Positions 47,447 through 64,000 of a stretch of 64,000 nt of DNA are shown here, piece after piece (positions within the stretch are counted from its first letter, which is position 1; each line of letters opens with the position of its first letter). Source of the DNA: Polytrichum commune (lineage: Eukaryota > Streptophyta > Polytrichopsida > Polytrichales > Polytrichaceae). The stretch covers positions 24,676,001-24,740,000 of the forward strand of contig OX485809.1 of assembly GCA_950295325.1 (NCBI GenBank), in the 5' to 3' direction. Below the pieces are notes generated by a model, which was given only the letters and a program-made list of their open reading frames with translations, ran no database searches and was not told the DNA's origin. The position numbers and the translations under genes are program-made.

Positions 47447-50400
47447 TCATGTGTCCTTCGATAGGTTTTCGCATTTAACTAATTCTTGATGGATCGCATA
47501 CGCAACCCATGCATCAAGACTCGCATACTCCACTTGAATCCGGTCCAAGTCACATTTTGCCCAGTTGCTCATAGTAACCCTCTTTGGTTTGTCCATGTCA
47601 AAATCGATGACCGCTTTGGCTAAGGTTTTGAGCCCCGCATTCTTGAGCTCCTGTTGGCCTCGAATTATGGATGCTAGATAACCGAGGTCGACTGCACCTT
47701 GAATCTTGAGGCCCCAGTCCTTTTCAAGCTTCTTGGCATCTCCAGAAATTCCGACTCCGTGCAACAATATTCTTGGGTCTTTCAGAAAATTAACAAGAGC
47801 CAACGGGATGGAGTCCAGGTACAGCATCTGGACAATCATACACTCTCTGTCCCCAGAGATCTGCACCAGTAAAACACCCTAATCGTTAATGACTGATTAA
47901 ATAACATCTCTGTAGGAGAACACTATTATACATATCTTATATTTGTGTTTCATACACTCTCTGTCCTCAGAGATCCGCACCACTAAAACAACCAGATGTT
48001 AACGACTGATAAAATGACATCTCTATAGGAGAACACTATTGTACATATCTTATATTTGTGTTTCATACACTCTCTGTCCCCGGAGATCTGCACCACTAAA
48101 ACAACCAGATGTTAACGACTGATAAAATGATGTCTCTGCAGGAGAACACTATTATACATTTCTTCTATTTGTGTTTCATACACTCTCTGTCCCCAGAGGT
48201 CTGCACCACTAAAACAACCAGATGTTAACGACTGATAAAATGACATCTTTGCAGGAGAACACTATTATACATATCTTATATTTGTGTTTCATACACTCTC
48301 TGTCCCCGGAGATCTGCACCACTAAAACTACCAGATGTTAACGACTGATAGAATGACATCTCTGTAGGAGAACACTATTATACATATCTTCTATTTGTGT
48401 TTCATACACTCTCTGTCCCCAGAGATCTGCACCACTAAAACAACCAGATGTTAATGACTGATAAAATGACATCTCTGCAGGAGAACACTATTATACATTT
48501 CTTATATTTGTGTTTCATACACTCTCTGTCCCCAGAGGTCTGCACCACTAAAACAACCAGATGTTAACGACTGATAAAATGACATCTTTGCAGGAGAACA
48601 CTATTATACATTTCTTATATTTGTGTTTTGCCCATAGTATTTCTAAGTGGTGTAAGGTAGATGGGTCTGAAATGTTTACTTTTTCCAACTAGCTCACTTT
48701 TCGTAGCCCATAACAAGCAATTAGTACCTAAATCGAGGTTGTAGCCACTTTCCTCATCATTTTTGGAGCTCATACGAATATCTTGTTCATTATCGAAGTA
48801 AAGATTCTCGTGCTCATTAAGTAATCATATAGGGCCCCTCCCCCAAATAAGTTGACTTTTGAGCCTAGAATGGTTATCATATATTGAGCATGTAGTTGAA
48901 TCTCTTCTAAACACATGATGCCCATAGGAAAATTGTTGTTGGTCTTCAGAGCTCGCATGATTGACTTATTCATTATTGAAGTGAAGATTCTCATGGTCAT
49001 CAAATGGTCATTTAGGTCCCCCCAATTATTTGACTATTGACCCTAGAGTGGTTAACATATTTTGAGCACAATATGCAATCTCTTTTATACACATGATGTC
49101 TTTTCGGTGTCCGTTCTTAGATCCACACCTAACCACACCCCACTCATTATGGGTGTCACACATTTTTTTAGGTGTTGGATTGACACCGATCTACATTATA
49201 CAAAGGTGAGATTCTCTTTGGTGATGGCTTTCAGTTGAACCTTGGTAGATGGGAGACGGCTTTGTCTGAAAATAGATAACAATGAAGTGTCAACTAAATG
49301 AGAGCTTGTGACTTGACTATGCTTGGCATTCACGCAATCAAGGACCTTGATTCTTGGATATATTCTTGCAGCTATAATAGAAAGATAATAATGTCTTTAC
49401 ACATTCTATCCATTGTTTGCACTACACAAGTAGAGTCTGGGTTTCCGCTCACCTAAGTCCAATAAATGCACATTCACCTCATCATTTGATTCAAACCATT
49501 TATATAAGTGAACATTTTAATATTCTCATACCTGAAAGATAAATCAGGAGCACACAGAAACAACCAAATGATGAATGCATTAGTGTTAATCCTTAAAGTC
49601 TCTCAAAAACTCATGTTTGGGTAGGTTGTTTCACCCCACTTTTGACGATTTATGATGTTTGAGGAGAGTTCAAGTGGTACTACTCAAAACATGCGATTTT
49701 GGTGAATTGAAGAGGAGGTATTCGACTTTGGCCCAGAGACAGTTATATAAAAATGAATTTCGTGTCAAACTTTTGAAAGCACCGTTACAGTGCAGTATGA
49801 ATTCAAGTATGAATATGGTACCTGCAGGAGGGCGACTTTGTGTTCGCTGCTGCCCTTCATGAAGTTGGGCCTCCACTCAACATCGAGACCAAAATCCTTG
49901 CCTTTCTGCCTCAATATCCATTCTTGCACAACCAGACCTTCTTTTGTGATCGTCACCGCTAATTGCTTCGCACCTGCAGTGACTTCTGACAGAATTGTCT
50001 TCTCCCCAGACCCCAGCTGCAGCCCTACTATGTCAGAGTTAGTCAAAAGGAACAATTATGCCTCAAGAGCAAATATACCAGCGTTGGATTGGTATCATCT
50101 TTTTTTCATACCATTCAGGTATCTATAATGAGGATTTCACATTTTTCTTATACCAGTAGGGTATGGGCATTTGACAATATTTTGGTTTTTGATACCATCC
50201 AAGAACCTTCATATCTAGGCAAAATCTCGCGAGTGTCAATATGGTCTGGAATGGTATTGACCCCAATAATAACTTGAGCATACAAAGATTCTCACCCCTT
50301 GACATACCCACTAAATATCATTATTTCACTGGTATTATAATTTTGATGCCCATGGGTAGGTTCTTTGATACCATTATTGATGTTGGTTATTGAAACCATG

Positions 50401-51752: not shown

Positions 51753-51905
51753 CCATGCCCACCCATGCCCATGGGTTTTGGGTGGGCATGGGTGGGCACG
51801 GGTGGGCATGGCTGCGATATTATTGGGCACGGGTGGGCATGGGTTCGTTATTATAATGGGTGGGCATGGGTTCGATATTATTGTTCATGGGTGAGCATGG
51901 GCTAA
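51753..51905 (+). repeat. GGGTGGGCAT minisatellite, G-quadruplex prone
   Basis: Repeats of about 10-20 bp built from GGGTGGGCAYGGG, with at least four G-runs within 30 bases, alternating with GATATTATTG spacers. It lies about 300-450 bp upstream of the exonuclease start on the opposite strand. Confidence 0.85.
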
Positions 51906-53228
51906 AGCAAAGCATATTGGAAGGGGTCATTGAATGAGCTCTCATTCAATGCTTTTGAGGGTAAGAGCACCGAATCACCTTCACCTAGTAAGGTGAGTCC
52001 ATCCTTCAAATGGAGGTCCCCGCAAGATGGAGATCCCCGATGCTTTAATTACTAAGGCGAAAGCAAAACTAAGGGAGCTTATGCGCTCGATTGGCACAAG
52101 GGAGGTTTTAGCTAATTTGGATCACGAGAAAGATGATGCACCGGCCCCACCACAAAAGAAGCGCCGTAATGATGACACGACATCTATGTACTATGAGTTT
52201 GAGGATGAGTGCGAGCCTAATTTTTGGCCAATTAGTTTAACTATAGACATATAGTTGAGTCTTGGATGAAGTTCTCCAAGCGGATGAAAATAGTTGAACT
52301 ATGGGCTAGGAAGTTGGTTATAACTATTAGCACGGCCATAGGTGGCCTTAGTCAGTTACGATAACTATCGTCTTCCCCCGCCAAGCTAAGAGGGTTGGTG
52401 AGGGAGAAGCAAGCAGACATTACTTTGATCATTTTTGAGCGCATTGTTTACCTGATAGTCTTGTCTCCTTTGATACAGATTGTGCGAGGACAATAATTAA
52501 CTATATTCTTTGGGTGATCACTGCAGTGATTGCGGGTTACCAATTTCCATGAAGGAACTTTGTTATTTGAATTTATGAGTTATGATGAATGGCCGAGAAG
52601 GGTTGAACTACTATCTATTTTTATTACTGGAATGCAAGAGTGAAGCATTGTTGAAGCTGCAATTGAATGAGAGTTGCAAGCAAGATTGTGTAATGTGAAC
52701 GAGCAAGAGTATGAATCAGAAGTGAGATTGAGAAACGTAATGTGAGGTAGAATTGCTAAGAAGAGTGTGTGAAATTATCGTCGATTGTTGAGATTGCAAT
52801 GGGCTAAATTCGAGAGTGAGAATGAGATTGCTTGAGTGTAAATTACAGAGAGCAATGCTAGATTGTGGGAGGAATTGAAGGATTTTAAAGTGTGAGAAGA
52901 ATTGAGAGTCTAAGAGAGAAATAATCAATCCATGAATGAAAGGGAGCACAAAGGAGAAAGATGAATAAATAATGAGGAAGTGATTGTTAATTGAGTAATC
53001 TGAGAGGAATGAAGAATCAGAGGGTGAAATCCAAAGTAAAAACTATGAGCGGAAAACAGGGAACGAGAAGATTGTTATGTGAGCGAACTATGATCAGAGC
53101 GCGGAGTTATCTTCTGTCTGAGAGAAATCGAGTGATTTAAATGTGAAGAGTGAGGAGTTACGCTGAACTATAATCATAGGATGTTAACCTAACGCAGAGG
53201 GTGAAGAAGTAGAACTATCATTGGGTGA
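51906..53228. other. Unassigned G/A-rich region 5' of the retrotransposon
   Basis: Contains a 75-codon frame at 52027-52254 (basic KKRR then YYEFEDE) that I cannot identify; it may be a remnant of another transposon protein. The rest is G/A-rich and non-coding, with a style (GAGAGAAAT, GTGAGAGG) like the sequence after 63165. Confidence 0.4.
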
Positions 53229-53663
53229 TGTCACGTGAGGTGACATCGGGGGCTAAGTTACGTCAATTTAGGAGTAAATGGACTCCATTAGGAGTCCATG
53301 TGTGTTGGGATGAGTAACGGACTCCATTGGGAGTCCTAGTTAGTTGTTCATCCACTTCATGGATGAACTCCACATAGGATTGGGGTTGTATGGAGAGGAA
53401 GGCCTCTTGACTTGCCATTGTTGTCAAGTCAAGTCTTGTGAGTGTGTTTTGAGAGAGAGAGAGAGAGCTTGTTGTTGCTTTCTCATGGCTATGGTGTAGT
53501 AAATTATGAGTAAAGCCTTTGCATTCTTTCTCCCTCACTTGCATTCTTGGATTCTCCCTTCGTGGAGTGAGAGATAGCTTGACTCTTGTGTGTGAATTTT
53601 AGAGTTTCTTAAGCTTTGTAAGGAGACATTTTAGTTTCTTAAGCTTGGAGAGAGAAACCCTCA
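53229..53663 (+). repeat. 5' LTR (unit B)
   Basis: 435 bp, TGTCACGTGAGG...ACCCTCA. Near the start it carries three short palindromes: GGACTCCATTAGGAGTCC, GGACTCCATTGGGAGTCC and TCATCCACTTCATGGATGA. A (GA)n run follows later. Compared with the 3' copy it lacks the 108-bp unit A in front. Confidence 0.88.
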
Positions 53664-54972
53664 TACTTGACAACAATGGCTCAAATTTTTCATTTTTTGG
53701 TTGTATTTCTGAGCTAGAATGGCCCAATATTGAGAGCAAATGAGTGATACAAGTGTTTGAAAGCTTAGTTTGTCATTTCTTGCAACCCTCAAGAAGATTT
53801 TGAGAGAAATCTTCCCATTTTTCTTTTGTTGTCTCTTTGTGTTTTCTTCAAGTGTTGATGGTTGAATCTTGAGATTCCATTTGGTCTCAAGATTCTCAAG
53901 TCACATCATTCTTGCTTGCAATTTGTAAAAGCAAAGTTTAATTTTTTTTTAAATTTACAAACAAACACAAACCAAACTTAAAATCCGAATTATTATTATT
54001 ATTATTATTTTTTGGAGCTCCGGAGCTCCACGGACACTCTTGGAGCTCTTGGAGCTCCTGGAGCTCCAATTCTGAACCCCGGGGGCGGCAAAATCCCGGG
54101 CCGGGGGCGGGCGGGCGGCAGCCTGGCCCCCCCTTTATTTCAAGGTAAGCCTTGTGAGATTAAGTTAGTTAATTAATTACTTAATTAGGTTAGTTTGCTA
54201 ACTAATTAGGTTAGTTAATTAGGTTAATTAAGTTAGTTCACTTAATTAGTTAATTAGGTTGGTTAATTAAGTTAGTTAATTAAATTAGGTTAGCTTAATT
54301 AGGTTATGTTCAGTTTAAGTTAATTAAGTTAGGTTGAGTTAAATTAAATTAATTAAGTTAATTCATTTAAGTTAATTATGTTAATTATGTTTATTTTGTT
54401 TTTGTTATTTTGTTATTTTTGTTATTTTGTTTTGTTTAATTAAAACAATTATTTTATTTTATTTTATTTTTCACATTTTTACTTTCACCTTTCAAACTTG
54501 GCATCCAATTCTCACAAACTTTGAGGTTCGAATTTGGGGGCATACTAGCTCCGATTGGAGTGAAATTTGAGCCTATCTTGTGTGAAATTTGCCAAGGAAT
54601 CCAATGGTCTAATTGGATTGTTGATTGGAATTCAAAATCATTGCTGAAATTATTAATTTCAACGCTAATTTTTGTTTTTGGGAGCAAATTAACTCCGATT
54701 GGAGTGAAATTTGAGCCTAATTTGTGTGAAATCTTCCTAGGAGTCCATTGGTGCACTTAGTTTGATGATTGGAGTCCATAATCACCTTGGAAATGAGCAT
54801 TTTCAACGCTGATTTTTAATTTTAATTACCAATCTCAAACCTTTGCACAATTTTGGAATTCTGGAGGCATATACATTTGGCATTTGGCAAGGGATTGCCA
54901 TTTAGATAGCCCGCAACAGGTGCAGGTTGCCATTACCTTGTAGATAGTTGCAGGTACTCAAGTGATTATTTT
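53664..54972 (+). other. Retrotransposon leader between 5' LTR and Gag
   Basis: 1.3 kb without coding signal. It contains clustered GGAGCTCC palindromes (54014-54068), a very GC-rich block (54075-54133) in AT-rich surroundings, a TTAATTAGGTTAG-like array (54145-54385) and a 144-bp unit present twice (about 54520-54808, CTCCGATTGGAGTGAAATTT at 54549 and 54693). A packaging or primer-site role is possible but not shown. Confidence 0.6.
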
Positions 54973-57108
54973 ATGGTGCAAACTAGGAGCCGATATTATC
55001 GATCTCCATCACCAGATTACTTGGAGGACGTGCATACCACAAATCTTGAGCCAGAGGTAGATACCAACGAGGCTTTTGAGCCTATTTCGGCGTTGGACAC
55101 TACTAGTAGGCTTCGGATTTGGAGTGTCGGCACGTTCGACGAAATGGAGGACGATCGCCACAATTCAGTGCGTGATCGGTTTTCAGGTCGAGCTGGGGGC
55201 ATTTCCTTGCCCGATTGGAAACTCCGGTTTCGTACCTGGATTAAGGAGAAACGCCAAAGGTCTTCCAATTTCAATGATTGGTATGCCTTTGAACTTCTGC
55301 CTGAACATTTGGAGTATGAGGCACTCCAAACTTATGAACGCTGGACAGAGGGTCATCAACGACAACTTCGGGAGGTGGAGCAGTATTGGGAGGCTCGGGT
55401 TGAGCTCGTTTCAACCCTTAAGGATGGGGCGGTTGCTACCTTAGCTCCACCCACCTTAAAGGAGGAGGAATCGCCGGCGGAGTCTAAGGACACGGAACTG
55501 GCACTTGGGCCAATGGTGGCTAGCAGTAGCACGGCAACCCTTTCACGGGTGGCACGTGCTACACAGGCAGCATTGACGGTTGTTGGTCCACCACCTCCGT
55601 TTAATCCCCTTATTGAATTTGTCGCACATTTGGAAGTGGAGTATGGTGGGTTTCGGCGAGACCAGATGCAGCGCATCCAGGATTTCCGCCGAGAGAAGGA
55701 TGATACTCCACGAACCATGTATACGCGATTCGCGCGATTTGCTGTGGAGTCGGGAGGTATTTTTGCTGAGAGTCAGCTTGTTAAAATCTTTTTGTCTAAG
55801 ATTGACAAGCGGCTACTTGAGTTGGCATCACCTCGGATTATCCTCGACTACGAGGGCCGAGCTACGCTTGCACAAGCGTTTGCCGTGGTTGAGAGATGTG
55901 ATCGGGCTCTTTGCCAACATTATGCCACGGATATGGTATCTTGGATGACAGAGAGTCTGAAACCAAGAAGAATTGTCACAGCTACTAGTAGTTTAGCTGA
56001 GACTCAACCCGTCAAGGAACAAAAGATTTTGCATTGTTGTGGTTATGGAGAAGCTGGTCATTCGAAGAATGATCCCAATTGTCCTAAGAAGAAGAAAACT
56101 CAGCCTTTGGGAAAATTAAAACAAAAGATGGAACCAGTAAAGGCAGGGGACAATTCTAAGAAGAAACAATTGAAATGTAACCATTGTGGTGGCACTAATC
56201 ACGATGTGGATCATTGTTTCCAACTTCATCCTGAGATGCGGCCTGCCAGTTATGTCACTGGAAAGTCTCCAAGGGAGCAGAGTCTTGAGGCTAAGGTAGC
56301 AGAGTTTGAACAAAAGCTCAAATTTTCTGCATCTTTTGCTCAAATTTCTGAGCCGCATGTGGGTGGTGGCACCTCGGGTTCGGACATGTATATGTTTGGA
56401 GCAGCTGGAGAGGTGGTGGCGGCGGCTTCTACTCGCTCACAAACATTGGCAGATGTAGTGGCTTCCACGAGTGGTGGTAGCAACGAGGTGCTACATCTTC
56501 GCCATGTCGGACCAGCTGATCAAATTGGTCAAGCACGTTTACCTCTTTCATTTGGATTGGTAGACACCACTGTTGTTGGGGCTAAAAACCCTATACCTTT
56601 GAGAGATGGGGATTCCATCTCGAAGGATGTTACGCAGGCATTGGCATATAAAATTCTCCATATGCCAATTTTCTCGGGTTCGGAATTTATGGCTTCGGAT
56701 TTCAAGCCTGCTGCAGTTTTTCATTTAGCTGGGAGAATGTTAGAAGGTAAGGCGGATTTGCCATCCCTTCAAGTATCCCAAGCTGTGGTTGACGTACCTG
56801 TGGCTGAGGAGGTGGAGGACTTAGCCAATTTGCGAGCGAATCTTGCGGATGCGGCGATCATTGCTTTTGGTAAGCAAACTGATATTCCTCCAGCGTTAAT
56901 TTCAGCAGTGGATACGTCATTTTCGAATTATGCGTCGGGAGCATCATATCTTGCAGACATTTCTGCAAGGCCTGCTCGCGAACGGCATAATTTGCAACCT
57001 GGAGTTGTACGGCTAATGAACGACAAATCTTTGTTTGTCGTTTCACGCACGGATATGCCCACTATCCGTGCTACACCACTGAGAGTTATGATGGATTCCG
57101 GTGCTTAA
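54973..57108 (+). CDS. gag: Gag and start of protease (retrotransposon)
   Basis: 711 codons from an ATG (MVQTRSRYYRS), with a retrotransposon Gag helical region about residues 70-330. There are two zinc knuckles at about residues 354-370 and 394-410. The second is intact CX2CX4HX4C (CNHCGGTNHDVDHC). The first has Tyr in place of its second Cys (codon 56044-56046, TAT), which probably disables it. A Gly/Ala-rich linker follows. The frame runs directly into the protease active site (MMDSGA, about 57091-57105) and stops at TAA 57106-57108. The same frame continues beyond the stop, so Gag and Pol were one polyprotein or this stop is new. Confidence 0.85.
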   Translation: MVQTRSRYYRSPSPDYLEDVHTTNLEPEVDTNEAFEPISALDTTSRLRIWSVGTFDEMEDDRHNSVRDRFSGRAGGISLPDWKLRFRTWIKEKRQRSSNFNDWYAFELLPEHLEYEALQTYERWTEGHQRQLREVEQYWEARVELVSTLKDGAVATLAPPTLKEEESPAESKDTELALGPMVASSSTATLSRVARATQAALTVVGPPPPFNPLIEFVAHLEVEYGGFRRDQMQRIQDFRREKDDTPRTMYTRFARFAVESGGIFAESQLVKIFLSKIDKRLLELASPRIILDYEGRATLAQAFAVVERCDRALCQHYATDMVSWMTESLKPRRIVTATSSLAETQPVKEQKILHCCGYGEAGHSKNDPNCPKKKKTQPLGKLKQKMEPVKAGDNSKKKQLKCNHCGGTNHDVDHCFQLHPEMRPASYVTGKSPREQSLEAKVAEFEQKLKFSASFAQISEPHVGGGTSGSDMYMFGAAGEVVAAASTRSQTLADVVASTSGGSNEVLHLRHVGPADQIGQARLPLSFGLVDTTVVGAKNPIPLRDGDSISKDVTQALAYKILHMPIFSGSEFMASDFKPAAVFHLAGRMLEGKADLPSLQVSQAVVDVPVAEEVEDLANLRANLADAAIIAFGKQTDIPPALISAVDTSFSNYASGASYLADISARPARERHNLQPGVVRLMNDKSLFVVSRTDMPTIRATPLRVMMDSGA

Positions 57109-57669
57109 CCGGTTATGATTGGCAAAAGACTTGCTGACAGTCTTGGATTGACGCCAGCAAGCTTGGATCCTTGTCCATTTACTATTGTGACTTCAGTAGG
57201 GGACACTGAACGTGCAACAGGTTACACCAAGACACCTCTACGTTTGATTTTTCATGTGGGGGCAGGGCCTACTTACACTCATTTGTCAATGAAGTGTGTT
57301 GTTACTAATGCTACCAACTATGATATATTTGTTGGTCAGCAAGCTCTTTACCCACTTGGCTTTGGTTTGGATAATTAGACGGAAGAGGCATGGATTAGAC
57401 CGGGATGGTCCACTGGAGATGGCAGGAAGGAATTTATTCCCGTCACATTTGCAGCCACTGCTATGACTATGGTTGCGGAGGCAATGTTTGGTTGCAGCGG
57501 TTCAGTTGCAGATTTGCCTTGTGCTCCAGTTTTATTGGAGGAAACAATGAACTACACTTGTAATGCGGCAGAACAACAATTTTTACCATCTTTTCAAATT
57601 CCTGCTCGACATTTCAAGGATCCACCTCCACCATGGCGAACTCCTAAGGAGTTATCCGACCATTATTAA
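57091..57669 (+). CDS. Retroviral-type aspartic protease and linker (retrotransposon), interrupted
   Basis: Continues the Gag frame after the TAA at 57106. The D-S-G active site comes just before it, then GKRLADSLGL, and NYDIFVGQQALYPLGFG ends the protease fold (the last part resembling the flap-to-ILG region of gypsy proteases). Further in-frame stops lie at 57376-57378 (TAG) and 57667-57669 (TAA). The linker to the methyltransferase is hydrophilic. Confidence 0.75.
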
Positions 57670-57675
57670 CACATT

Positions 57676-58704
57676 GTGGCGGATTTGGAGCTTGGAGAGG
57701 CACCTCCAACTTCATCCTCATTTTCTTTTGCTCAATCCATTCGTTGGCAACCATCACCTGAAGGTATTGTCATTGTGGAGATCTTTGGAGGCATTGGCAC
57801 AGGTTTGGCGGTAGTGTTGGAAGCTGGAATTACAGTTTGGCGATATATTCATGTGGACATTGGGTATGCAGCCAACAGAGCCGTCCGACACCACATCCAA
57901 CAATTGTTGTTGAGATACCTCGCACAATTGTCAGCCTCTGCCATTCATGGATGTTGTGGTCAACTTCCTCAAGATGTCACTATGATTAGTGATGAGGATT
58001 TGAGAAGGTTGGGCCACGTGGATTTGATTATTGCAGGATGGCCTTGTCAAGGCCATTCGCAGGCAGGAACTGGCCAGGGATTGGATGACCCTAGGTCTAG
58101 TTTGTTTGCGGATTTGATGCGATTGACACAATGGTGGTTTACCCACCAATCAACTCCGCCAAGGTACATTTTCGAAAATGTACCATTATTGGGTGATACC
58201 CGGCACAAAGTGGTGAAGGATGGTGAGTACATTAACCAAATTCTAGGTACTCCAACATTTATGGATGCTGCATCTTTGGGATCCTTTGCTCATCGGCCTC
58301 GTTGGTTTTGGACCAACTTGGTATCACCTCGGGTGCTTTCAGCGGCGATTGCCCGCATTCCCCGCCTTATGGATCGCAAGGTGGATGACATTTTAGATGA
58401 TCATCGTGTTTCCTTGGCAATTACCAAGGATGACACCTTGTCATTTGTATTAATTAACAAGGTGGGCATTCCGAGAGGTGCACTACCTACTTTTGTGACA
58501 TATCCACAGTCTTTTGCATTTCGATCTCGTGGACCTGGCATGGTTTGGGATTCAAAATCCCAAACTTACGAGGAGCCTACGGCAAATGAGCGGGAACGCG
58601 CCATGGGTTTTCTTACAGGTACCACGGCTGCTCACGGGCTTCAGGAAGGTCAGAGACGTTTCCTATTGGGCAAGCTATGGATCTTAATAGCATTGTGTGG
58701 ATAA
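57676..58704 (+). CDS. C5 cytosine DNA methyltransferase domain within the retrotransposon polyprotein
   Basis: Same frame as Gag and protease. C5-MTase motifs appear in order: motif I EIFGGIGTGL (about 57778-57807, AdoMet binding), motif IV GWPCQGHSQ with catalytic Cys codon 58045-58047, motif VI ENV (58174-58182), motif VIII RPR (58294-58302), a region of about 100 residues for target recognition, then an ERERAMGF/GTT motif (about 58588-58620) and a FLLGK...MDLNS stretch at the position of motif X. The domain is compact, about 330 aa, with no other regulatory domain. A one-base loss near 58672-58674 moves the end of the domain to the next frame (from 58677). All catalytic residues are present. 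Cytosine methyltransferases in retrotransposons have been described from a charophyte alga and dinoflagellates; this is a plant-like genomic setting. Confidence 0.9.
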   Translation: MADLELGEAPPTSSSFSFAQSIRWQPSPEGIVIVEIFGGIGTGLAVVLEAGITVWRYIHVDIGYAANRAVRHHIQQLLLRYLAQLSASAIHGCCGQLPQDVTMISDEDLRRLGHVDLIIAGWPCQGHSQAGTGQGLDDPRSSLFADLMRLTQWWFTHQSTPPRYIFENVPLLGDTRHKVVKDGEYINQILGTPTFMDAASLGSFAHRPRWFWTNLVSPRVLSAAIARIPRLMDRKVDDILDDHRVSLAITKDDTLSFVLINKVGIPRGALPTFVTYPQSFAFRSRGPGMVWDSKSQTYEEPTANERERAMGFLTGTTAAHGLQEGQRRFLLGKLWILIALCG

Positions 58705-59069
58705 TTGGAATTTGTCTTGCTGCTCAACAACGTATGGATGACCAATTGCTTACTCTGAGGGCAGAGAACAATGGTCAGAGGGCAATGGAGTTGCAATCCA
58801 AGGATCACATTGAGGTCAATGACACCGAGAGATTATTTCCTTTGAAACTTCATGTTGCGGAAGAGCTTCGAGCCCAACGTGTTTTTTCGGCTTTGGCCCA
58901 AGAGTTTGGGAAGTTGGAGGCCCATAAAATGTTTCCACCTCTATTTCTTGGTGATACTTCATATGTGGGTAGCTATTTAGCTACCCAAACTGATTGTAGT
59001 GGAGAGGATACACATTTGGATTCAAGTGCAGATGATGGGGGCAAAGGTGTTGCCCTCTCCACGGACTAG
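58677..59069 (+). CDS. End of methyltransferase domain and linker to RT (frameshifted)
   Basis: 130 codons in the frame used by the rest of Pol. The first 20 (MDLNSIVWIIGICLAAQQR) complete the methyltransferase C terminus. The remainder is a hydrophilic linker (KLHVAEELRAQRVFSALAQE) leading to the RT. It stops at TAG 59067-59069, after which the same frame continues. Confidence 0.7.
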   Translation: MDLNSIVWIIGICLAAQQRMDDQLLTLRAENNGQRAMELQSKDHIEVNDTERLFPLKLHVAEELRAQRVFSALAQEFGKLEAHKMFPPLFLGDTSYVGSYLATQTDCSGEDTHLDSSADDGGKGVALSTD

Positions 59070-59081
59070 CAATCACAGGCT

Positions 59082-60460
59082 ATGCTGGCACCAAATGGCA
59101 ATCCTTCTATGAAGAAGGAAACCACGGAGTTTGACGATTGGCCAATTGAAGTGGGGCCAAAGCTTACTGGTGCCGAAACACGAAAGGTACGGGCATTTAT
59201 TCGCTCTTACCGTAATTGTTTTGCCTTTAGTCTTCATGATCTTGAAGGATATAAAGGTAAACCTGTTCGTATTCAACTCGAGGACGACCACCCTATTTTC
59301 AGACGGCCGTACAGACTTAGTACCTCTGAAAGGTTGGGTGTTCAAACTCGATGTCAAGAGTTATTGGAAGCGGAATTGATTGAACTCTCCAATGGAGAGT
59401 ATGCTTGTGCCACGGTTATGCCGTCAAAAAATGATATCTTTGGCAACTGGACGGAAAAATGGATGTGTGGTGATTATCGTCTAGTCAACCGTAAGACTAA
59501 GTCGGATCGATATCCAATGCCGATGCCGGAGGAGTTGTTTGATGCACTGGGATTTTCTAGAATCTTCAGCACTCTGGATTTAAGGTCTGGTTATCACCAA
59601 TTACCTTTGTTGTTGGGTGATCGGGTGAAGACCGCATTTTGGGGAATTGATAAAGATGGCAATGATCAACTTTATCATTGGAAATTTTTGCCATTTGGTC
59701 TCAAGAATGCACCAGCTGAATTTCAGCGGGTAATGGACCAATTATTGGCTGGTTTGCCGTTTGCTAGATGTTACATTGATGATGTTATCATCTTTAGTAA
59801 TAGTCCACAGGATCATGTGAGACATTTGCAAGCGGTATTTGAACGACTTCAACAGTGGGGACTCCGTTTACATCATGGAAAATGTAAGTTTTTCCATGAT
59901 CAATTGCCCTATTTAGGCCACATGATTGTTTATGGCGGTCTTGGTGTGCAACAGGCGAAGGTGGATGCTTTGCACAAAATTCCCGCACCTAGTGATGTAC
60001 GACGGCTTCGTGCATTTCTAGGATTGGCAAATTATTATAGGAGGTTTGTCAAAAACTTTATTTTGATTGCCAAACCTCTTACCATTCTCACGGGGAAAGA
60101 CCAACCATGGATTTGGAGTCGGGAACAACAACAGGCATTTGATACATTGAAGCAGAGGCTCGGTTCAGCGCCAGTGCTTTGACGCCCGGATGTGTCTAGA
60201 GCTTTTCAATTGCACACGGATTGGAGTGCAGTGGGATTGGGAGCGGTATTGACACAGAAAGATGAAGAGGGAAAAAAATATGTGGTGGTTTATGCATCTA
60301 GAAGCAATAATAGTGCTGAATCTAATTATTCTTCTTATGAAGGCGAGGCCTTGGCGGCCGTTTGGGCCATTGCACATTTTCGACCGTATTTATATGGGCA
60401 AAAGTTTACTTTGGTGACTGATCATCAGCCTTTAAATGACTTATGGAATCAGATAAGCTC
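59082..60460 (+). CDS. Reverse transcriptase and RNase H (retrotransposon)
   Basis: RT fingers and palm: RPYRLSTSER, DYRLVNRKTKSDRYPMP, FSTLDLRSGYHQL, FLPFGLKNAPAEFQ, the catalytic YIDD at 59772-59783, and LGHMI then FLGLANYYRRFVKNF in the thumb/connection. A TGA at 60180-60182 interrupts the frame. RNase H follows with its acidic residues in HTDWSAVGLGA, SYEGEALAAVWAI and VTDHQPL. The frame breaks at about 60440-60460, where a short segment also appears to be missing before the C-terminal RNase H part (EVVHRAGIANLDADGLSR) in the next frame. Confidence 0.88.
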
Positions 60461-61768
60461 ACCGGGAAACTTCAGGAATATGATTTTGAAGTTGTTCACC
60501 GAGCAGGAATTGCCAACTTGGATGCAGATGGATTGTCTCGCAATCCAAGTCCTTCAGATGAGGATTTAACTGAAGCCAGGTGGCATGGAGATTGTGATCG
60601 TGAGGCAGTGCCAGGTTGGCATGCTGCCACATATCTTACAATGATGTCGGGATTGGCTGCTGAGATCCTTGTAAAAGAGCAAGATGAGGAGGTTGATAAA
60701 TCTCTCATTGTTAGTGATGTGTGGGAAGACCAGGCAGTCTTGCACAAACTTCAACAAGGGATATTTCCTCTTGGACTATCTGCTATGGAGCGAGATAGAG
60801 TTAGTCACCGGATAACAAGGTTTCGTTGGGCAAACAGCTTGTTATTTCGTGTGTGGCCGAACGGAACGAGGCGCATCGTTCCAAGGCCAGATCAAAGAGC
60901 TTCTTTGGCGCGGCAAGTGCACGAGGAACTTGGATATTTTAGAGTGCGAAGGACGCACTCTATGTTGCGCAACCAATATTGGTGGACTGGTATGTATCAA
61001 CAGGTTGCCACTTATGTTTCTCGGTGTGAAGTATGTGACCGGGTCAAGTCAAATTTTAATACTTTGTCACCTCAACTTCAGCCTTTACCTATTATGGGCT
61101 TGGGATATCGTTGGTCTTTGGATTTTGCCGGACCGCTTACTATCACTCCATGTGGTTCCAAGTATGTGCTTGTGATGGTGGAGCATTTTAGTAAGTGGAT
61201 TGAACTCGTGGCTCTTCCCCAAAATTCCTCAGAATTGGCGGCTATGGCATTTCTTGATCGAGTTTTGGCACGGTTTGGAGCACCTGCAGAGATGTTGACG
61301 GATCAAGGGAGAGAATTCCTTGGATCTTTCGAGACTTTGTGTACCAAGGCTTTGATTGATCATCGGATAACTTCCAGAGATCACCTTGAGGCAAATGGCT
61401 TAGCTGAACGAGTTGTTCAGACGGTTAAGCGCGGTTTGCGGAAGTATGGATTGCTTCATGGCAACCATCGCGATTGGGACTTGATGTTACCATGGATAGC
61501 AATGGGTTATCGTTTCAGCAGGCAAGCATCTTTGGCATCCTATAGTCCTTACCAACTCTTGTATGGACGGGAACCAATTTTACCTAGCTCGGTGCGAGAG
61601 AAATTGGCTCCCGTGGTAAACTTGGATGATCCAGATGTTTGGGCTCAATGTCTTCATGACCGACCAACGTTCTTCCAAAAAGCCATGCCTATGGCTATGG
61701 AGAACTTAAATATTGCTCAACATTGTGATACATTACGGTATGCCCGGATCCGCAGTGGAGCTTATTGA
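60443..61768 (+). CDS. End of RNase H and integrase (retrotransposon)
   Basis: After the RNase H tail comes an HHCC zinc-binding domain (HEELGYF...TH, then CEVCD at about 61025-61039) and a DDE core: SLDFAGPL, LTDQGREF and, 35-40 residues on, EANGLAERVVQT. YSPYQLLYGREP follows, resembling the GPY/F-containing C-terminal region. The frame ends at TGA 61766-61768 and continues beyond it with a further TAA at 61811-61813. Confidence 0.88.
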   Translation: MESDKLTGKLQEYDFEVVHRAGIANLDADGLSRNPSPSDEDLTEARWHGDCDREAVPGWHAATYLTMMSGLAAEILVKEQDEEVDKSLIVSDVWEDQAVLHKLQQGIFPLGLSAMERDRVSHRITRFRWANSLLFRVWPNGTRRIVPRPDQRASLARQVHEELGYFRVRRTHSMLRNQYWWTGMYQQVATYVSRCEVCDRVKSNFNTLSPQLQPLPIMGLGYRWSLDFAGPLTITPCGSKYVLVMVEHFSKWIELVALPQNSSELAAMAFLDRVLARFGAPAEMLTDQGREFLGSFETLCTKALIDHRITSRDHLEANGLAERVVQTVKRGLRKYGLLHGNHRDWDLMLPWIAMGYRFSRQASLASYSPYQLLYGREPILPSSVREKLAPVVNLDDPDVWAQCLHDRPTFFQKAMPMAMENLNIAQHCDTLRYARIRSGAY

Positions 61769-61831
61769 CCTCAGGTTCGTAGATTTTCCAAGGGGGATTA
61801 TGTTTACTTGTAACGGGAGGCGCCTACGACA

Positions 61832-62170
61832 TTGGATGTCAAGGCTGGGCGCACGATTTTGCGGGTAAAAGATGTCTTGCGAAGTGGTATATTATTGCTT
61901 GAAGGCAAGGATGGACGGGAATGCCGTGAGCATTCAAAGAATTGTACTCCATGTCACCTTCCCATCGACGGCTCTGTGCATCCCGAGTTGGCGGTTGTAC
62001 CACAGGGTTTGCCTTGTTATGTTTGTGGAGAGAAGAAAGGAGCTGCAACAATGTTATTGTGCGACCAATGTCAACGTGGATGACACATGGCATATTGACA
62101 CCTCCCATTTTTATTCTTCCTTCTGGCAATTGGGTTTGTCCTCGTTGTCGGAAAGCCTCTCATTCCGTGG
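61832..62170 (+). pseudogene. Terminal PHD finger of the retrotransposon polyprotein, broken
   Basis: Continues the integrase frame. A Cys-rich run (NCTPCHLP) is followed by a C4HC3 PHD pattern: Cys codons at 62015 and 62024, then CDQC (62060-62071) and His at 62084. The residue expected to be Cys three after the His is Tyr (TAT). The frame then shifts, and TPP...PSGNWVCPRC with the last Cys pair at 62137 and 62146 lies in the next frame. TGA at 62081-62083 replaces the invariant Trp before the His. PHD fingers read histone H3 tails, so targeting of integration or of the methyltransferase to chromatin is a reasonable inference for intact relatives. Confidence 0.75.
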
Positions 62171-62514
62171 CCGTTAATGGTCATGATTGAGAATTTTGTG
62201 GATGTTTACCATATGTTTTAGTGGTGAAGTTATTATTTAGTTGGTTGGAATTTTTATGGGATTAAGACCACATTAAAAGAGTTATCCAAGAATTTAACAT
62301 TAATTGTTGAAGGCGATTAAGGATGGGGCTCACATTGCACCCAACCTACAGTTCTTGGATTACTTTGTCAATCACGAGTTTAATTCCTTCGATTACTACT
62401 ACCCAATTAAGTATGTATAGATGTAGCAACAACTTCATCATGTTCAACAACTCTACCGATGAGTGTGTTTGTTCCTAGCCGATTGGAGGGGCTCCTTATC
62501 TGCTAGTGGGGGCA
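62171..62514 (+). other. Retrotransposon 3' untranslated region with polypurine tract
   Basis: Non-coding. A purine-rich TAGTGGGGGCA at about 62504-62514 immediately precedes unit A and is the best candidate for the plus-strand primer (polypurine tract). Confidence 0.5.
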
Positions 62515-62622
62515 CTTGAAGAGGTGGTTGTTTAGCATTTTAGTTTGCTATTTTATTTTATTAATTGATGTTGACAACGACACTCGATCTGTTGTGTTTA
62601 ACGATCTTAGTTTACACGACAG
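62515..62622 (+). repeat. Unit A before the 3' LTR
   Basis: 108 bp, CTTGAAGAGGTGG...CACGACAG, repeated at 63058-63165 with two transitions. Because it follows the polypurine tract, A may really be the beginning (U3) of the LTR, with unit B as its end; A would then be missing from the 5' LTR. Confidence 0.7.
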
Positions 62623-62623
62623 C

Positions 62624-63056
62624 TGTCACGTGAGGTGATATCGGGGGCTAAGTTACGTCAATTTAGGAGTAAATGGATTCCATTAGGAGTCCGTGTGTGT
62701 TGGGATGAGTAACGGACTCCATTGGGAGTCCTAGTTAGTTGTTCATCCACTCCATGGATGAACTCCACATAGGATTGGGGTTGTATGGAGAGGAAGGCCT
62801 CTTGACTTGCCATTGTTGTCAAGTCAAGTCTTGTGAGTGTGTTTTGAGAGAGAGAGAGAGCTTGTTGTTGCTTTCTCATGGCTATGGTGTAGTAGATTAT
62901 GAGTAAAGCCTTTGCATTCTTTCTCCCCCACTTGCACTCTTGGATTCTCCCTTCGTGGAGTGAGAGATAGCTTGACTCTTGTGTGTGAATTTTAGAGTTT
63001 CTTAAGCTTTGTAAGGAGACATTTTAGTTTCTTAAGCTTGGAGAGAGAAACCCTCA
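62624..63056 (+). repeat. 3' LTR (unit B)
   Basis: 433 bp, colinear with 53229-53663. Differences: seven transitions and a 2-bp shorter (GA)n. Flanked on both sides by unit A. Confidence 0.88.
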
Positions 63057-63057
63057 T

Positions 63058-63165
63058 CTTGAAGAGGTGGTTGTTTAGCATTTTAGTTTGTTATTTTATT
63101 TTGTTAATTGATGTTGACAACGACACTCGATCTGTTGTGTTTAACGATCTTAGTTTACACGACAG
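63058..63165 (+). repeat. Unit A after the 3' LTR
   Basis: Second copy of 62515-62622, starting one base after the LTR end. It is followed by sequence not otherwise present in the window. Confidence 0.75.
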
Positions 63166-64000
63166 TGAGATGATTGTTAAACAAAGGGCCCTGGCTGAAT
63201 GATAGTCTGAGTAGCCTGAGAGAGAGAGGACGAGTCCTGTGAGAGACAAACCTTGAGAGAGGGAGGCATTTGGAAGGCCAAGAGGCAAAGGAGGGTTAAA
63301 CTATGGACAATAGTTGACACCTGTTATCGGCTGTAAGGAAGCCGAAAGGCCAGGTGTCAGGCCAAGTGAGAAATCATGGACTATTGTTAGCCTGAGAGAG
63401 GCACTAAGAGGAGATTGTAAGGCCAAAAGCCAGACCACAAAGTGGAATAATTGAATATAGTTGAAGCCTGTGAGAGGTAGTGATGAGGAAAGTGAATACT
63501 TCAGCCAAAAGAGATTATAGTTGAATCTTGAATGTTAGGCTGATAGGATTATAATTTGGAAAGTGAAGTTAACGAGAGGAACCCTAATTAACTGAAGTGA
63601 TGAGAAATCATTTTTTATGAGTTGATTAGAGGGGATTTGAGAAGTTAGGGTTATTGAGAGTAAGTCTAAGTTAGAATGAACTTGGGATTATAAAGGAAAC
63701 CTAGGCATAAGTTATTCTAATCTTAATTAAAGTTGTAAACTGATATTTAGTCAAGGGATTTGATCTTTGAGTATGAGATGCACATTAACGTAATCAACTA
63801 TTGTTTTGTGTGTTACCCTGGTTGTTGTTGTTGTTGTTGTAGTAGGTTGTGCAAGGCGACCAAGATTATAGCTAGCTGTTAAGCTTTGTTAGTTGCATAA
63901 GTTGTGAGTAATGATTAAATTTGAAATTAAGGAATAAACAATTTGTCTTGTATTGGAATTAACATTGACCAAGTAATGAAGGAATTGTTGTGATTTGAAG
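63166..64000. other. 3' flank, G/A-rich, no gene seen
   Basis: GAGAGAGG-rich repeats with words such as CCTGAGAGAG and AGGCCAA repeated irregularly, and a (GTT)n microsatellite at about 63823-63840. Possibly part of another copy of the same element family or its long terminal region extending past the window. Confidence 0.45.

What the first reader, a model, noticed from the sequence alone, without database searches (positions are those of the whole stretch)
53229..63056. Ty3/gypsy retrotransposon encoding its own C5 cytosine DNA methyltransferase between protease and reverse transcriptase
Motifs I, IV (PCQ), VI (ENV), VIII (RxR) and IX/X-like occur in the same frame as Gag and protease and lead into RT, so the methyltransferase is part of the polyprotein rather than a host gene nearby. 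Methyltransferase-bearing retrotransposons are known in Klebsormidium and dinoflagellates; here the surroundings (HYDIN, BAHD, GDU-like, WRN-like exonuclease) suggest a land plant. An element that methylates DNA could mark its own copies, change host silencing or protect its DNA.
Basis: partly seen in the sequence, partly recalled or inferred. Interest (0 to 1): 0.92.

Follow-up and report, generated by a model that had tools for sequence, protein, structure and literature searches.

The report
Moss jumping gene carrying DNA methyltransferase
A multi-copy, recently active retrotransposon in what is probably a moss genome carries its own DNMT3-type DNA-methylating enzyme, placed before a probably leaky stop codon, and it inserts with an unusual split-repeat layout, so it may methylate its own DNA and may move through a circle.

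Summary
Window 53229-63164 is a decayed copy of a multi-copy element whose MTase frame (57670-58704) lies between protease and RT. By profile and predicted fold the MTase is DNMT3-type. In the same genome 106 of 111 scored RT copies have the MTase upstream; at the other 5 no element DNA was found there. Corrections: (1) The repeats are not plain LTRs but split direct repeats, A-coding-B-A-B. A 4-bp target duplication flanks the outer TG..CA ends in 19 of 22 copies with both ends visible. (2) In better-kept copies the MTase ends the Gag-PR frame at UAG-CAA-YCA (a tobamovirus-type leaky context), and RT-RH-IN-PHD follows. (3) Priming looks self-primed, with co-varying primer and target. (4) The A2|B2 joint equals the predicted LTR-LTR junction in 15 of 16 copies, suggesting a circle opened by a DDE integrase. 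Closest known: KnitGypsy-Dnmt3 of Klebsormidium (2018), which shares Gypsy domains, Dnmt3 and A-coding-B-A-B. Relatives occur in Marchantia, Calypogeia, Sphagnum and Closterium. New variant of a known kind. MTase activity, readthrough and the circle are inferred, not shown; the host species was not identified.

The parts
53225..53228 (+). left 4-bp target site duplication GTGA
   Evidence: identical to 63165-63168; exact 4-bp duplication in 19 of 22 copies with both outer ends seen, of 29 examined
53229..53664 (+). repeat A1 (left terminal, begins TGTCACG)
   Evidence: 427 of 434 aligned positions identical to A2
53414..53429 (+). self-primer segment GCCATTGTTGTCAAGT in A1, possibly at the RNA 5' end
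   Evidence: exact reverse complement of the leader 53665-53680; the RNA start is inferred
53665..53680 (+). primer binding site ACTTGACAACAATGGC directly after A1
   Evidence: pairs with a segment of A in three sequence variants
54910..57108 (+). Gag with zinc-knuckle-like Cys-His clusters (by eye) and the start of PR (DSGA)
   Evidence: aligned with Gag of L029 and other relatives; no Pfam match in the window piece
57109..57378 (+). aspartic protease, rest; interrupted by stops in this copy
   Evidence: Pfam gives only sub-threshold protease matches in copy c2 and none in the window piece
57670..58704 (+). C5 cytosine DNA methyltransferase, DNMT3-type; open, but the frame is lost in motif X
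   Evidence: PF00145 7.5e-13; PDB profile best DNMT3A 5.7e-19; Foldseek rows listed are all DNMT3A/B/C entries (model of copy c2)
58045..58047 (+). catalytic Cys of motif IV (PCQ)
   Evidence: C126, invariant in 20 aligned sequences
59067..59069 (+). UAG between MTase and RT, followed by CAA TCA (UAG-CAR-YYA)
   Evidence: TAG CAA TCA in 9 of 10 fetched copies and L029, TAG CAA CCA in the tenth; known leaky context (PMC3542737, passages)
59070..60182 (+). reverse transcriptase
   Evidence: RVT_1 4.2e-31
60183..60569 (+). RNase H; frame broken in this copy
   Evidence: RT_RNaseH 5.4e-31
60440..61768 (+). integrase (H2C2 and rve/DDE core)
   Evidence: Integrase_H2C2 2.8e-15, rve 2.6e-12
61990..62190 (+). 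remnant of a PHD finger at the end of the integrase frame
   Evidence: Cys-rich segments, no Pfam match in the window; PHD in L029 PF00628 4.3e-10
62506..62514 (+). polypurine-tract-like GTGGGGGCA directly before B1
   Evidence: G-run followed by CA before B1 in L029 and in the 16 copies with both repeat pairs (the script located B1 by this run)
62515..62621 (+). repeat B1 (ends CACGACA)
   Evidence: 106 of 108 positions (one base of the spacer included) identical to B2
62622..62623 (+). GC spacer of the B|A junction (ACA-GC-TGT)
   Evidence: 15 of 16 copies (d7 has GT) and L029; 242 such junctions in the genome at up to 2 mismatches, reversed-pattern control 0
62624..63057 (+). repeat A2
63058..63164 (+). 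repeat B2 (right terminal, ends CACGACA)
63165..63168 (+). right 4-bp target site duplication GTGA

Best explanation
Shown: this is one decayed copy of a multi-copy Ty3/gypsy-type retrotransposon family that carries a DNMT3-type cytosine methyltransferase as the last domain of its Gag-PR reading frame. RT-RH-IN-PHD follows in the same frame after one UAG in tobamovirus-type leaky context. Most copies examined have the order A-coding-B-A-B and a 4-bp target duplication outside TGT...ACA. Inferred, fairly strong: the stop is read through; the RNA primes itself; RT makes a linear DNA with B-A at each end; those ends join (joint A|B) and the DDE integrase cuts and pastes at the abutted B|A site ACA-GC-TGT, so an LTR-type copying route ends in a DIRS-like circle. 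Inferred, weaker: Gag-PR-MTase is made in excess over Gag-PR-MTase-RT-IN, so the MTase is packaged at Gag level and methylates the element's own cDNA or circle de novo before or at integration.
For: MTase: PF00145; DNMT3A/B best by profile and fold (pLDDT 87.6, pTM 0.86); dN/dS 0.07-0.12 in the 9 between-subfamily or L029 pairs with a finite (but near-saturated) dS. Family: 127 MTase places scored of 567 first-look candidates and 111 RT places scored of 2187; 106 of 111 RT with MTase. Stop: UAG-CAA-YCA in 10 of 10 copies and in L029. Ends: of 21 copies with long end pieces (c1-c10, d1-d10, window) 16 show A-coding-B-A-B, 3 A-coding-B, 2 were unresolved (d1, d4); target duplication in 19 of 22; of 89 listed A|leader sites one has B|A 300-800 nt upstream and 42 have it 7.5-11 kb downstream. 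Self-primer: 13-16 nt complement at a fixed place, in three variants. Junction: A2|B2 equals the A1 end joined to the first base after the purine tract in 15 of 16, in two subfamilies with different sequences; the exception c6 has a small deletion.
Against: No transcript, protein, methylation or circle data. The yeast test of the Klebsormidium element's DNMT showed no methylation, inconclusive in the authors' words. Motif IV reads PCQ where DNMT3A reads PCN. Within ten young copies mean MTase dN is 0.013 against mean dS 0.020, ratio near 0.65, so selection since the last burst is not shown. The element is not CpG-poorer than the rest of the window (observed/expected 0.67 against 0.51), so no methylation footprint is seen there. 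Three copies (c1, c8, d10) have only A-coding-B. Three of 22 copies lack a perfect target duplication (d7, d8, e6). Another RT route could give the same layout without a circle.
Confidence: 0.7

Rival explanations
1. The MTase methylates host or neighbouring DNA, or lowers the element's own activity to spare the host, rather than treating the element's cDNA.
For: The enzyme would be made at Gag level (stop placement); a PHD finger after the integrase points to a chromatin link. The 2018 authors discuss a host-sparing option.
Against: Nothing here places the enzyme on chromatin; copy number is high and insertions are recent in the copies read (A1/A2 with 0-1 mismatch in 8 of 16, though these copies were picked for long frames).
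Confidence: 0.2
2. The MTase domain acts by binding nucleic acid (RNA packaging or chaperone) or by methylating RNA, not DNA.
For: It sits in the Gag frame with the zinc knuckles; the 2018 authors raise RNA methylation for LINE DNMTs.
Against: The Cys of motif IV is invariant and motif VI ENV nearly so in the 20 aligned sequences, and the fold matches DNMT3, not an RNA methyltransferase.
Confidence: 0.15
3. The repeats are ordinary LTRs (B-A) and the A-coding-B-A-B layout comes from later rearrangement or tandem insertion.
For: B starts right after a purine tract and A ends right before the primer site, as LTR ends would; at one place (C3:7794023, near copy d4) B|A lies 590 nt before A|leader.
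Against: Target duplications flank TGT...ACA, not the LTR-type ends, in 19 of 22 copies; B-A-coding order at 1 of 89 listed sites; the same layout in two subfamilies.
Confidence: 0.04
4. The A-coding-B-A-B DNA is made directly as a linear molecule by template switching during reverse transcription, with no circle.
For: Split repeats in DIRS-like elements are explained by RT models using the internal B-A copy (recalled, not from a call).
Against: The A2|B2 joint follows the LTR-end rule in two subfamilies and has a small deletion in c6, as end joining gives.
Confidence: 0.35
5. The MTase has no current function in this genome and is a hitch-hiker on its way out.
For: dN/dS near 0.65 among ten young copies and 0.32-0.38 within subfamily 2; the window copy is broken in several genes.
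Against: Kept in 106 of 111 scored RT copies, in frames of 1386 aa, conserved between subfamilies and present in liverworts, Sphagnum and Closterium.
Confidence: 0.08

Closest known systems
KnitGypsy-Dnmt3 of Klebsormidium nitens (de Mendoza et al. 2018, PMC5890265; abstract and sections 9-11 read, further passages by term search)
   Same: Gypsy domain composition, Dnmt3-type DNMT inside the element, repeats 'the same as' in DIRS elements (legend of Fig. 4), which section 6 describes as A-coding region-B-A-B; purifying selection on the DNMT.
   Different: There the DNMT is said to lie in the Pol polyprotein ORF; here it ends the Gag-PR frame before a leaky UAG. In its text 'PHD' and 'target site' occur 0 times; self-priming was not in the passages I saw.
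SymbioDIRS-Dnmt3 of dinoflagellates (same paper, passages)
   Same: Dnmt3 in a retrotransposon, A-coding-B-A-B repeats.
   Different: Uses a tyrosine recombinase; ours has a DDE integrase (rve) and target duplications.
MTase-bearing elements of Closterium sp. NIES-53/54, Marchantia polymorpha, Calypogeia fissa, Sphagnum troendelagicum (unnamed or hypothetical proteins)
   Same: PR-MTase order; Gag-PR-MTase frames of similar size in Marchantia; PR-MTase-RT-IN in Closterium P0108.
   Different: The Closterium P0108 frame runs on without a stop (1928 aa); MTase identity of the bryophyte relatives is 38% (Sphagnum, to the window) and 44-51% (Marchantia, Calypogeia, to L029).
Mostly unnamed RT-RH-MTase-IN elements (P0097, P0100, P0114-P0116, P0118, P0120, P0121, P0124-P0127)
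   Same: Homologous MTase, rve integrase, a PHD finger in all of these but P0114.
   Different: MTase sits between RT/RNase H and integrase; the ten with long enough RT form a separate group on a quick RT tree.
Tf1/Sushi and Tcn1 self-primed Ty3/gypsy elements (PMC6317226, passages)
   Same: Self-priming predicted or known.
   Different: Those are LTR elements, and chromoviruses mostly carry chromodomains; ours has split repeats and PHD, with no chromodomain found by Pfam in L029 frame B.

Membership tests
KnitGypsy-Dnmt3-like elements | Gypsy-type RT, RNase H and rve integrase | tested here: met
KnitGypsy-Dnmt3-like elements | Dnmt3-type DNMT domain | tested here: met
KnitGypsy-Dnmt3-like elements | A-coding-B-A-B repeats | tested here: met
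KnitGypsy-Dnmt3-like elements | DNMT in the Pol ORF | tested here: not met
   DNMT ends the Gag-PR frame, separated from RT by UAG
KnitGypsy-Dnmt3-like elements | direct sequence kinship with the Klebsormidium copies | not tested
Ty3/gypsy LTR retrotransposons | Gag-PR-RT-RH-IN order | tested here: met
   (with the MTase between PR and RT)
Ty3/gypsy LTR retrotransposons | identical LTRs at both termini | tested here: not met
   split repeats; 1 of 89 listed A|leader sites has B|A shortly before it
Ty3/gypsy LTR retrotransposons | short integrase-made target duplication | tested here: met
   4 bp in 19 of 22
DIRS-like (tyrosine recombinase) elements | split direct repeats A-coding-B-A-B | tested here: met
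DIRS-like (tyrosine recombinase) elements | tyrosine recombinase gene | tested here: not met
   Pfam finds rve and H2C2, no PF00589, in the window pieces and L029 frame B
DIRS-like (tyrosine recombinase) elements | no target duplication (defining trait recalled) | tested here: not met
DNMT3 methyltransferases | DNMT3 fold, motifs I, IV, VI, X in canonical (not DRM-rearranged) order | tested here: met
   motif IV is PCQ, not PCN
DNMT3 methyltransferases | de novo DNA methylation activity | not testable with these tools
   needs an assay
Tf1/Sushi-Tcn1 self-primed elements | self-complementary primer site | tested here: met
Tf1/Sushi-Tcn1 self-primed elements | chromodomain after the integrase | tested here: not met
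   PHD, no chromodomain, in L029 frame B

The most novel reading that the evidence does not exclude
A Gypsy-type retrotransposon copies itself by an LTR-type, self-primed route, joins the two ends of the product into a circle, and its DDE integrase then opens the circle at an internal abutted-end site (ACA-GC-TGT) and inserts it with a 4-bp duplication. This is a DIRS-like life cycle reached without a tyrosine recombinase, and it carries a DNMT3-type enzyme at Gag level that can methylate the circle before insertion.
Probability: 0.4. Interest if true: 0.86.

Novelty: new variant of a known kind. Interest (0 to 1): 0.74.

Why it matters
DNMT-bearing retrotransposons were reported for dinoflagellates and a charophyte alga. 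This shows a multi-copy family, apparently recently active, in what is probably a moss genome, with kin in liverworts, Sphagnum and Closterium, so the question of why a transposon carries the host's silencing enzyme can be put to tractable land plants such as Marchantia. The split repeats with integrase-type duplications are a second, separate surprise: such repeats are usually taken as a mark of tyrosine-recombinase elements (recalled), and they give a concrete, testable circle model.

Tried and rejected
Plain LTRs: rejected. Host gene or assembly join: rejected. Bacterial or phage MTase capture: the IMG/VR scan gave 28 loci with distant matches of 26-55% over parts of the query, which I did not follow up. 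The single genome-contig hit (L029) is a 9.3-kb contig with overlapping ends, filed under a cyanobacterial bin but encoding this element, so I take it for bin contamination. tRNA primer site: none seen after A1 by eye; the self-primer fits. Klebsormidium comparison: the last protein search was meant to reach it and listed no protein named Klebsormidium. Methylation footprint: A1/A2 and B1/B2 differences in 15 copies are 39 transitions to 2 transversions, but the CG/CHG/CHH split of the transitions (6/1/32) is close to composition (9/2/89%), so no context preference is shown; CpG observed/expected of the window element (0.67) is not below that of the rest of the window (0.51). Genome-wide count of the A2|B2 joint: not completed. 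Copies lacking MTase: 5 of 111 scored RT copies have non-element DNA in the expected stretch, three of them with a same-strand MTase 8-39 kb upstream by my reading; RT copies beyond the 111 scored were not examined. Host species: not identified; no protein search was left for a host gene. Copies whose ends could not be used: d1 and d4 (one side not found), e1-e3, e5 and e7 (one or both outer ends outside the short pieces).


Full report
What is there. The MTase frame at 57670-58704 is real (PF00145, 7.5e-13). It lies between Gag-PR (54910-57378, same frame, broken by stops) and RT-RNase H-integrase (59070-61768). The window copy is decayed: protease, the protease-MTase linker, the end of the MTase, RT/RNase H, the integrase C-terminus and PHD are interrupted. 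Its repeats are A1 53229-53664, B1 62515-62621, A2 62624-63057 and B2 63058-63164. A1/A2 agree at 427 of 434 aligned positions and B1/B2 at 106 of 108, so both pairs look to be of one age. GTGA flanks the whole.

It is a family. The window lies in a 407.8-Mb genome of 64 contigs; by the contig lengths shown, seven of them hold about 406 Mb. A search with the window MTase scored 127 places of 567 first-look candidates, one with the RT 111 of 2187; the tool calls such counts lower bounds. Of the 111 RT places, 96 have an MTase in the lists or 71 upstream on the same strand, 86 of them at 1314-1319 nt. Of the other 15, direct reading finds MTase in 10; in 5 (L108, L109, L110, L115, L122) the expected stretch holds no element DNA. 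By my count of the tables, 15 of 127 MTase matches are listed with a 1386-aa open frame and no stop inside, and 19 of 111 RT matches with a 1047-aa frame and no stop inside.

Coding plan. I fetched ten copies chosen for long frames (all nine with a 1386-aa frame and one with 1356), so their open Gag-PR-MTase frame is by selection. What follows was not selected: in 10 of 10 the frame ends in UAG followed by CAA TCA (9) or CAA CCA (1), and in 7 of 10 the same frame runs open from the next codon to the end of the fetched piece (833 codons). In c1 it is open only from a later codon, in c4 it is broken, and in c6 the long downstream frame is a different one. L029, a contig of 9285 bp whose 127-nt end overlap makes it a 9158-bp circle, has the same TAG CAA TCA between Gag-PR-MTase (read from two pieces that overlap at the contig ends) and RT-RH-IN-PHD. 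By my reading, 22 of the 101 proteins end in the same short tail at this stop. UAG-CAR-YYA is the tobamovirus type I readthrough context (PMC3542737, passages). Readthrough itself is inferred.

The enzyme. A profile of 29 sequences finds DNMT3A (5.7e-19), 3C and 3B before any other methyltransferase among the 60 of 169 PDB sequences shown; 4onj, a 'DNA methyltransferase' that I recall as plant DRM, follows at 2.4e-10. The predicted structure of copy c2's domain (pLDDT 87.6, pTM 0.86) has only DNMT3A, 3B or 3C entries (many with 3L) in the 50 rows listed of 219 with E up to 0.001 (best TM 0.84 by target length, 0.64 by query length). Cys of motif IV is invariant in 20 aligned sequences. Between the genome's two subfamilies and L029, MTase dN is 0.23-0.30 with dS saturated or near so; dN/dS is 0.07-0.12 in the 9 such pairs with finite dS. 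Among ten young copies mean dN is 0.013 and mean dS 0.020, within subfamily 2 dN/dS is 0.32-0.38, and the window against three copies of its subfamily gives 0.45-1.02, so recent selection is not shown. RT-RH-IN is more conserved (dN 0.078 between c2 and L029, against 0.226 for the MTase).

Ends and replication. Twenty-nine copies including the window were read at their ends. Both outer ends were found in 22, and 19 of these have an exact 4-bp duplication outside TGT...ACA (misses d7, d8, e6). The copies were chosen by frame length, not by their ends. Of the 21 with long end pieces, 16 have both repeat pairs, 3 (c1, c8, d10) are A-coding-B only, each with a 4-bp duplication, and d1 and d4 were not resolved. 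The short forms may be one-unit circles or later B1 x B2 recombination. In 15 of the 16 the A2|B2 joint is exactly the A1 end joined to the first base after the purine tract, in two subfamilies with different sequences (CAT|CTTGAAG and CTC|TGTCGAG); c6 has a small deletion (d2 read again). The junction B|A (ACA-GC-TGT) occurs 242 times and A|leader of the window's subfamily 157 times in the genome at up to 2 mismatches, with reversed-pattern controls of 0. From the first hundred places listed for each I compared 89 A|leader with 100 B|A sites (chromosomes C1-C4 and part of C5): one A|leader site has B|A 300-800 nt upstream (LTR order or tandem) and 42 have it 7.5-11 kb downstream. Right after A1 lies a sequence complementary to a segment inside A: 13-16 nt in 19 of the 20 c and d copies (d4 had no A1 to test), 16 in the window and 13 in L029, in three sequence variants that change on both sides. 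Self-priming is known from Tf1/Sushi and predicted for Tcn1 elements (PMC6317226, passages). The circle step is my inference from the joint and the duplications.

Relatives. Three protein searches returned 127 different proteins. Named plant or algal hosts are Sphagnum troendelagicum, Calypogeia fissa, Marchantia polymorpha (five proteins) and Closterium sp. NIES-53/54; most are unnamed metagenome proteins. Of the 101 from the first two searches, 53 carry at least one other element domain on the same frame; many of the rest are short fragments. Two orders occur, PR-MTase-RT and RT-RH-MTase-IN-PHD, and fall into different groups on a quick RT tree of 25 rows (SH-aLRT 93 and 96, no bootstrap); P0122 (MTase-RT-IN-PHD) stands apart on a long branch. 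One capture or several is open.

Known work. De Mendoza et al. 2018 (PMC5890265; abstract, sections 9-11 and passages) describe KnitGypsy-Dnmt3 with the same repeat layout and Gypsy domains. In the listings of ten searches of the held open-access library I saw no report of such elements in bryophytes and none of target duplications on split-repeat Gypsy elements; most listed papers were not opened, and subscription papers and preprints are not held. PMC12344493 (passages) mentions DNMT3 in Copia and DIRS retrotransposons of streptophytes and dinoflagellates, citing 2018.

Judgement. Identity and anatomy are secure. Readthrough and self-priming are well supported by sequence but not shown. The circle-opening integrase is the best reading of the ends but unproven. 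The role of the methyltransferase, most likely de novo methylation of the element's own cDNA, is inference.

Noticed in passing
window 47836-48628: Tandem array of a 113-bp unit, 7 copies, 93% matches.
   Followed up: no
window 51779-51901: Short G-rich tandem repeats (units of 10 and 31 bp).
   Followed up: no
I did not test it.
   Followed up: no
L029 (CADCWO010000201.1): A contig with overlapping ends (9158-bp circle) encoding this retroelement is filed in a cyanobacterial MAG; P0002 (named Obscuribacterales) and P0125 (named Minisyncoccia) look like the same kind of mis-binning.
   Followed up: partly
copy c3 (L042, L043): A tandem duplication of about 130 bp inside A is present in both A1 and A2, so the A copies seem to be renewed together.
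   Followed up: partly
A1/A2 and B1/B2 of 15 copies: 39 transitions to 2 transversions between paired repeats, with no clear context preference.
   Followed up: partly
G000 C3:7794023-7794632: Probable tandem or head-to-tail copies sharing an A repeat, near copy d4.
   Followed up: no
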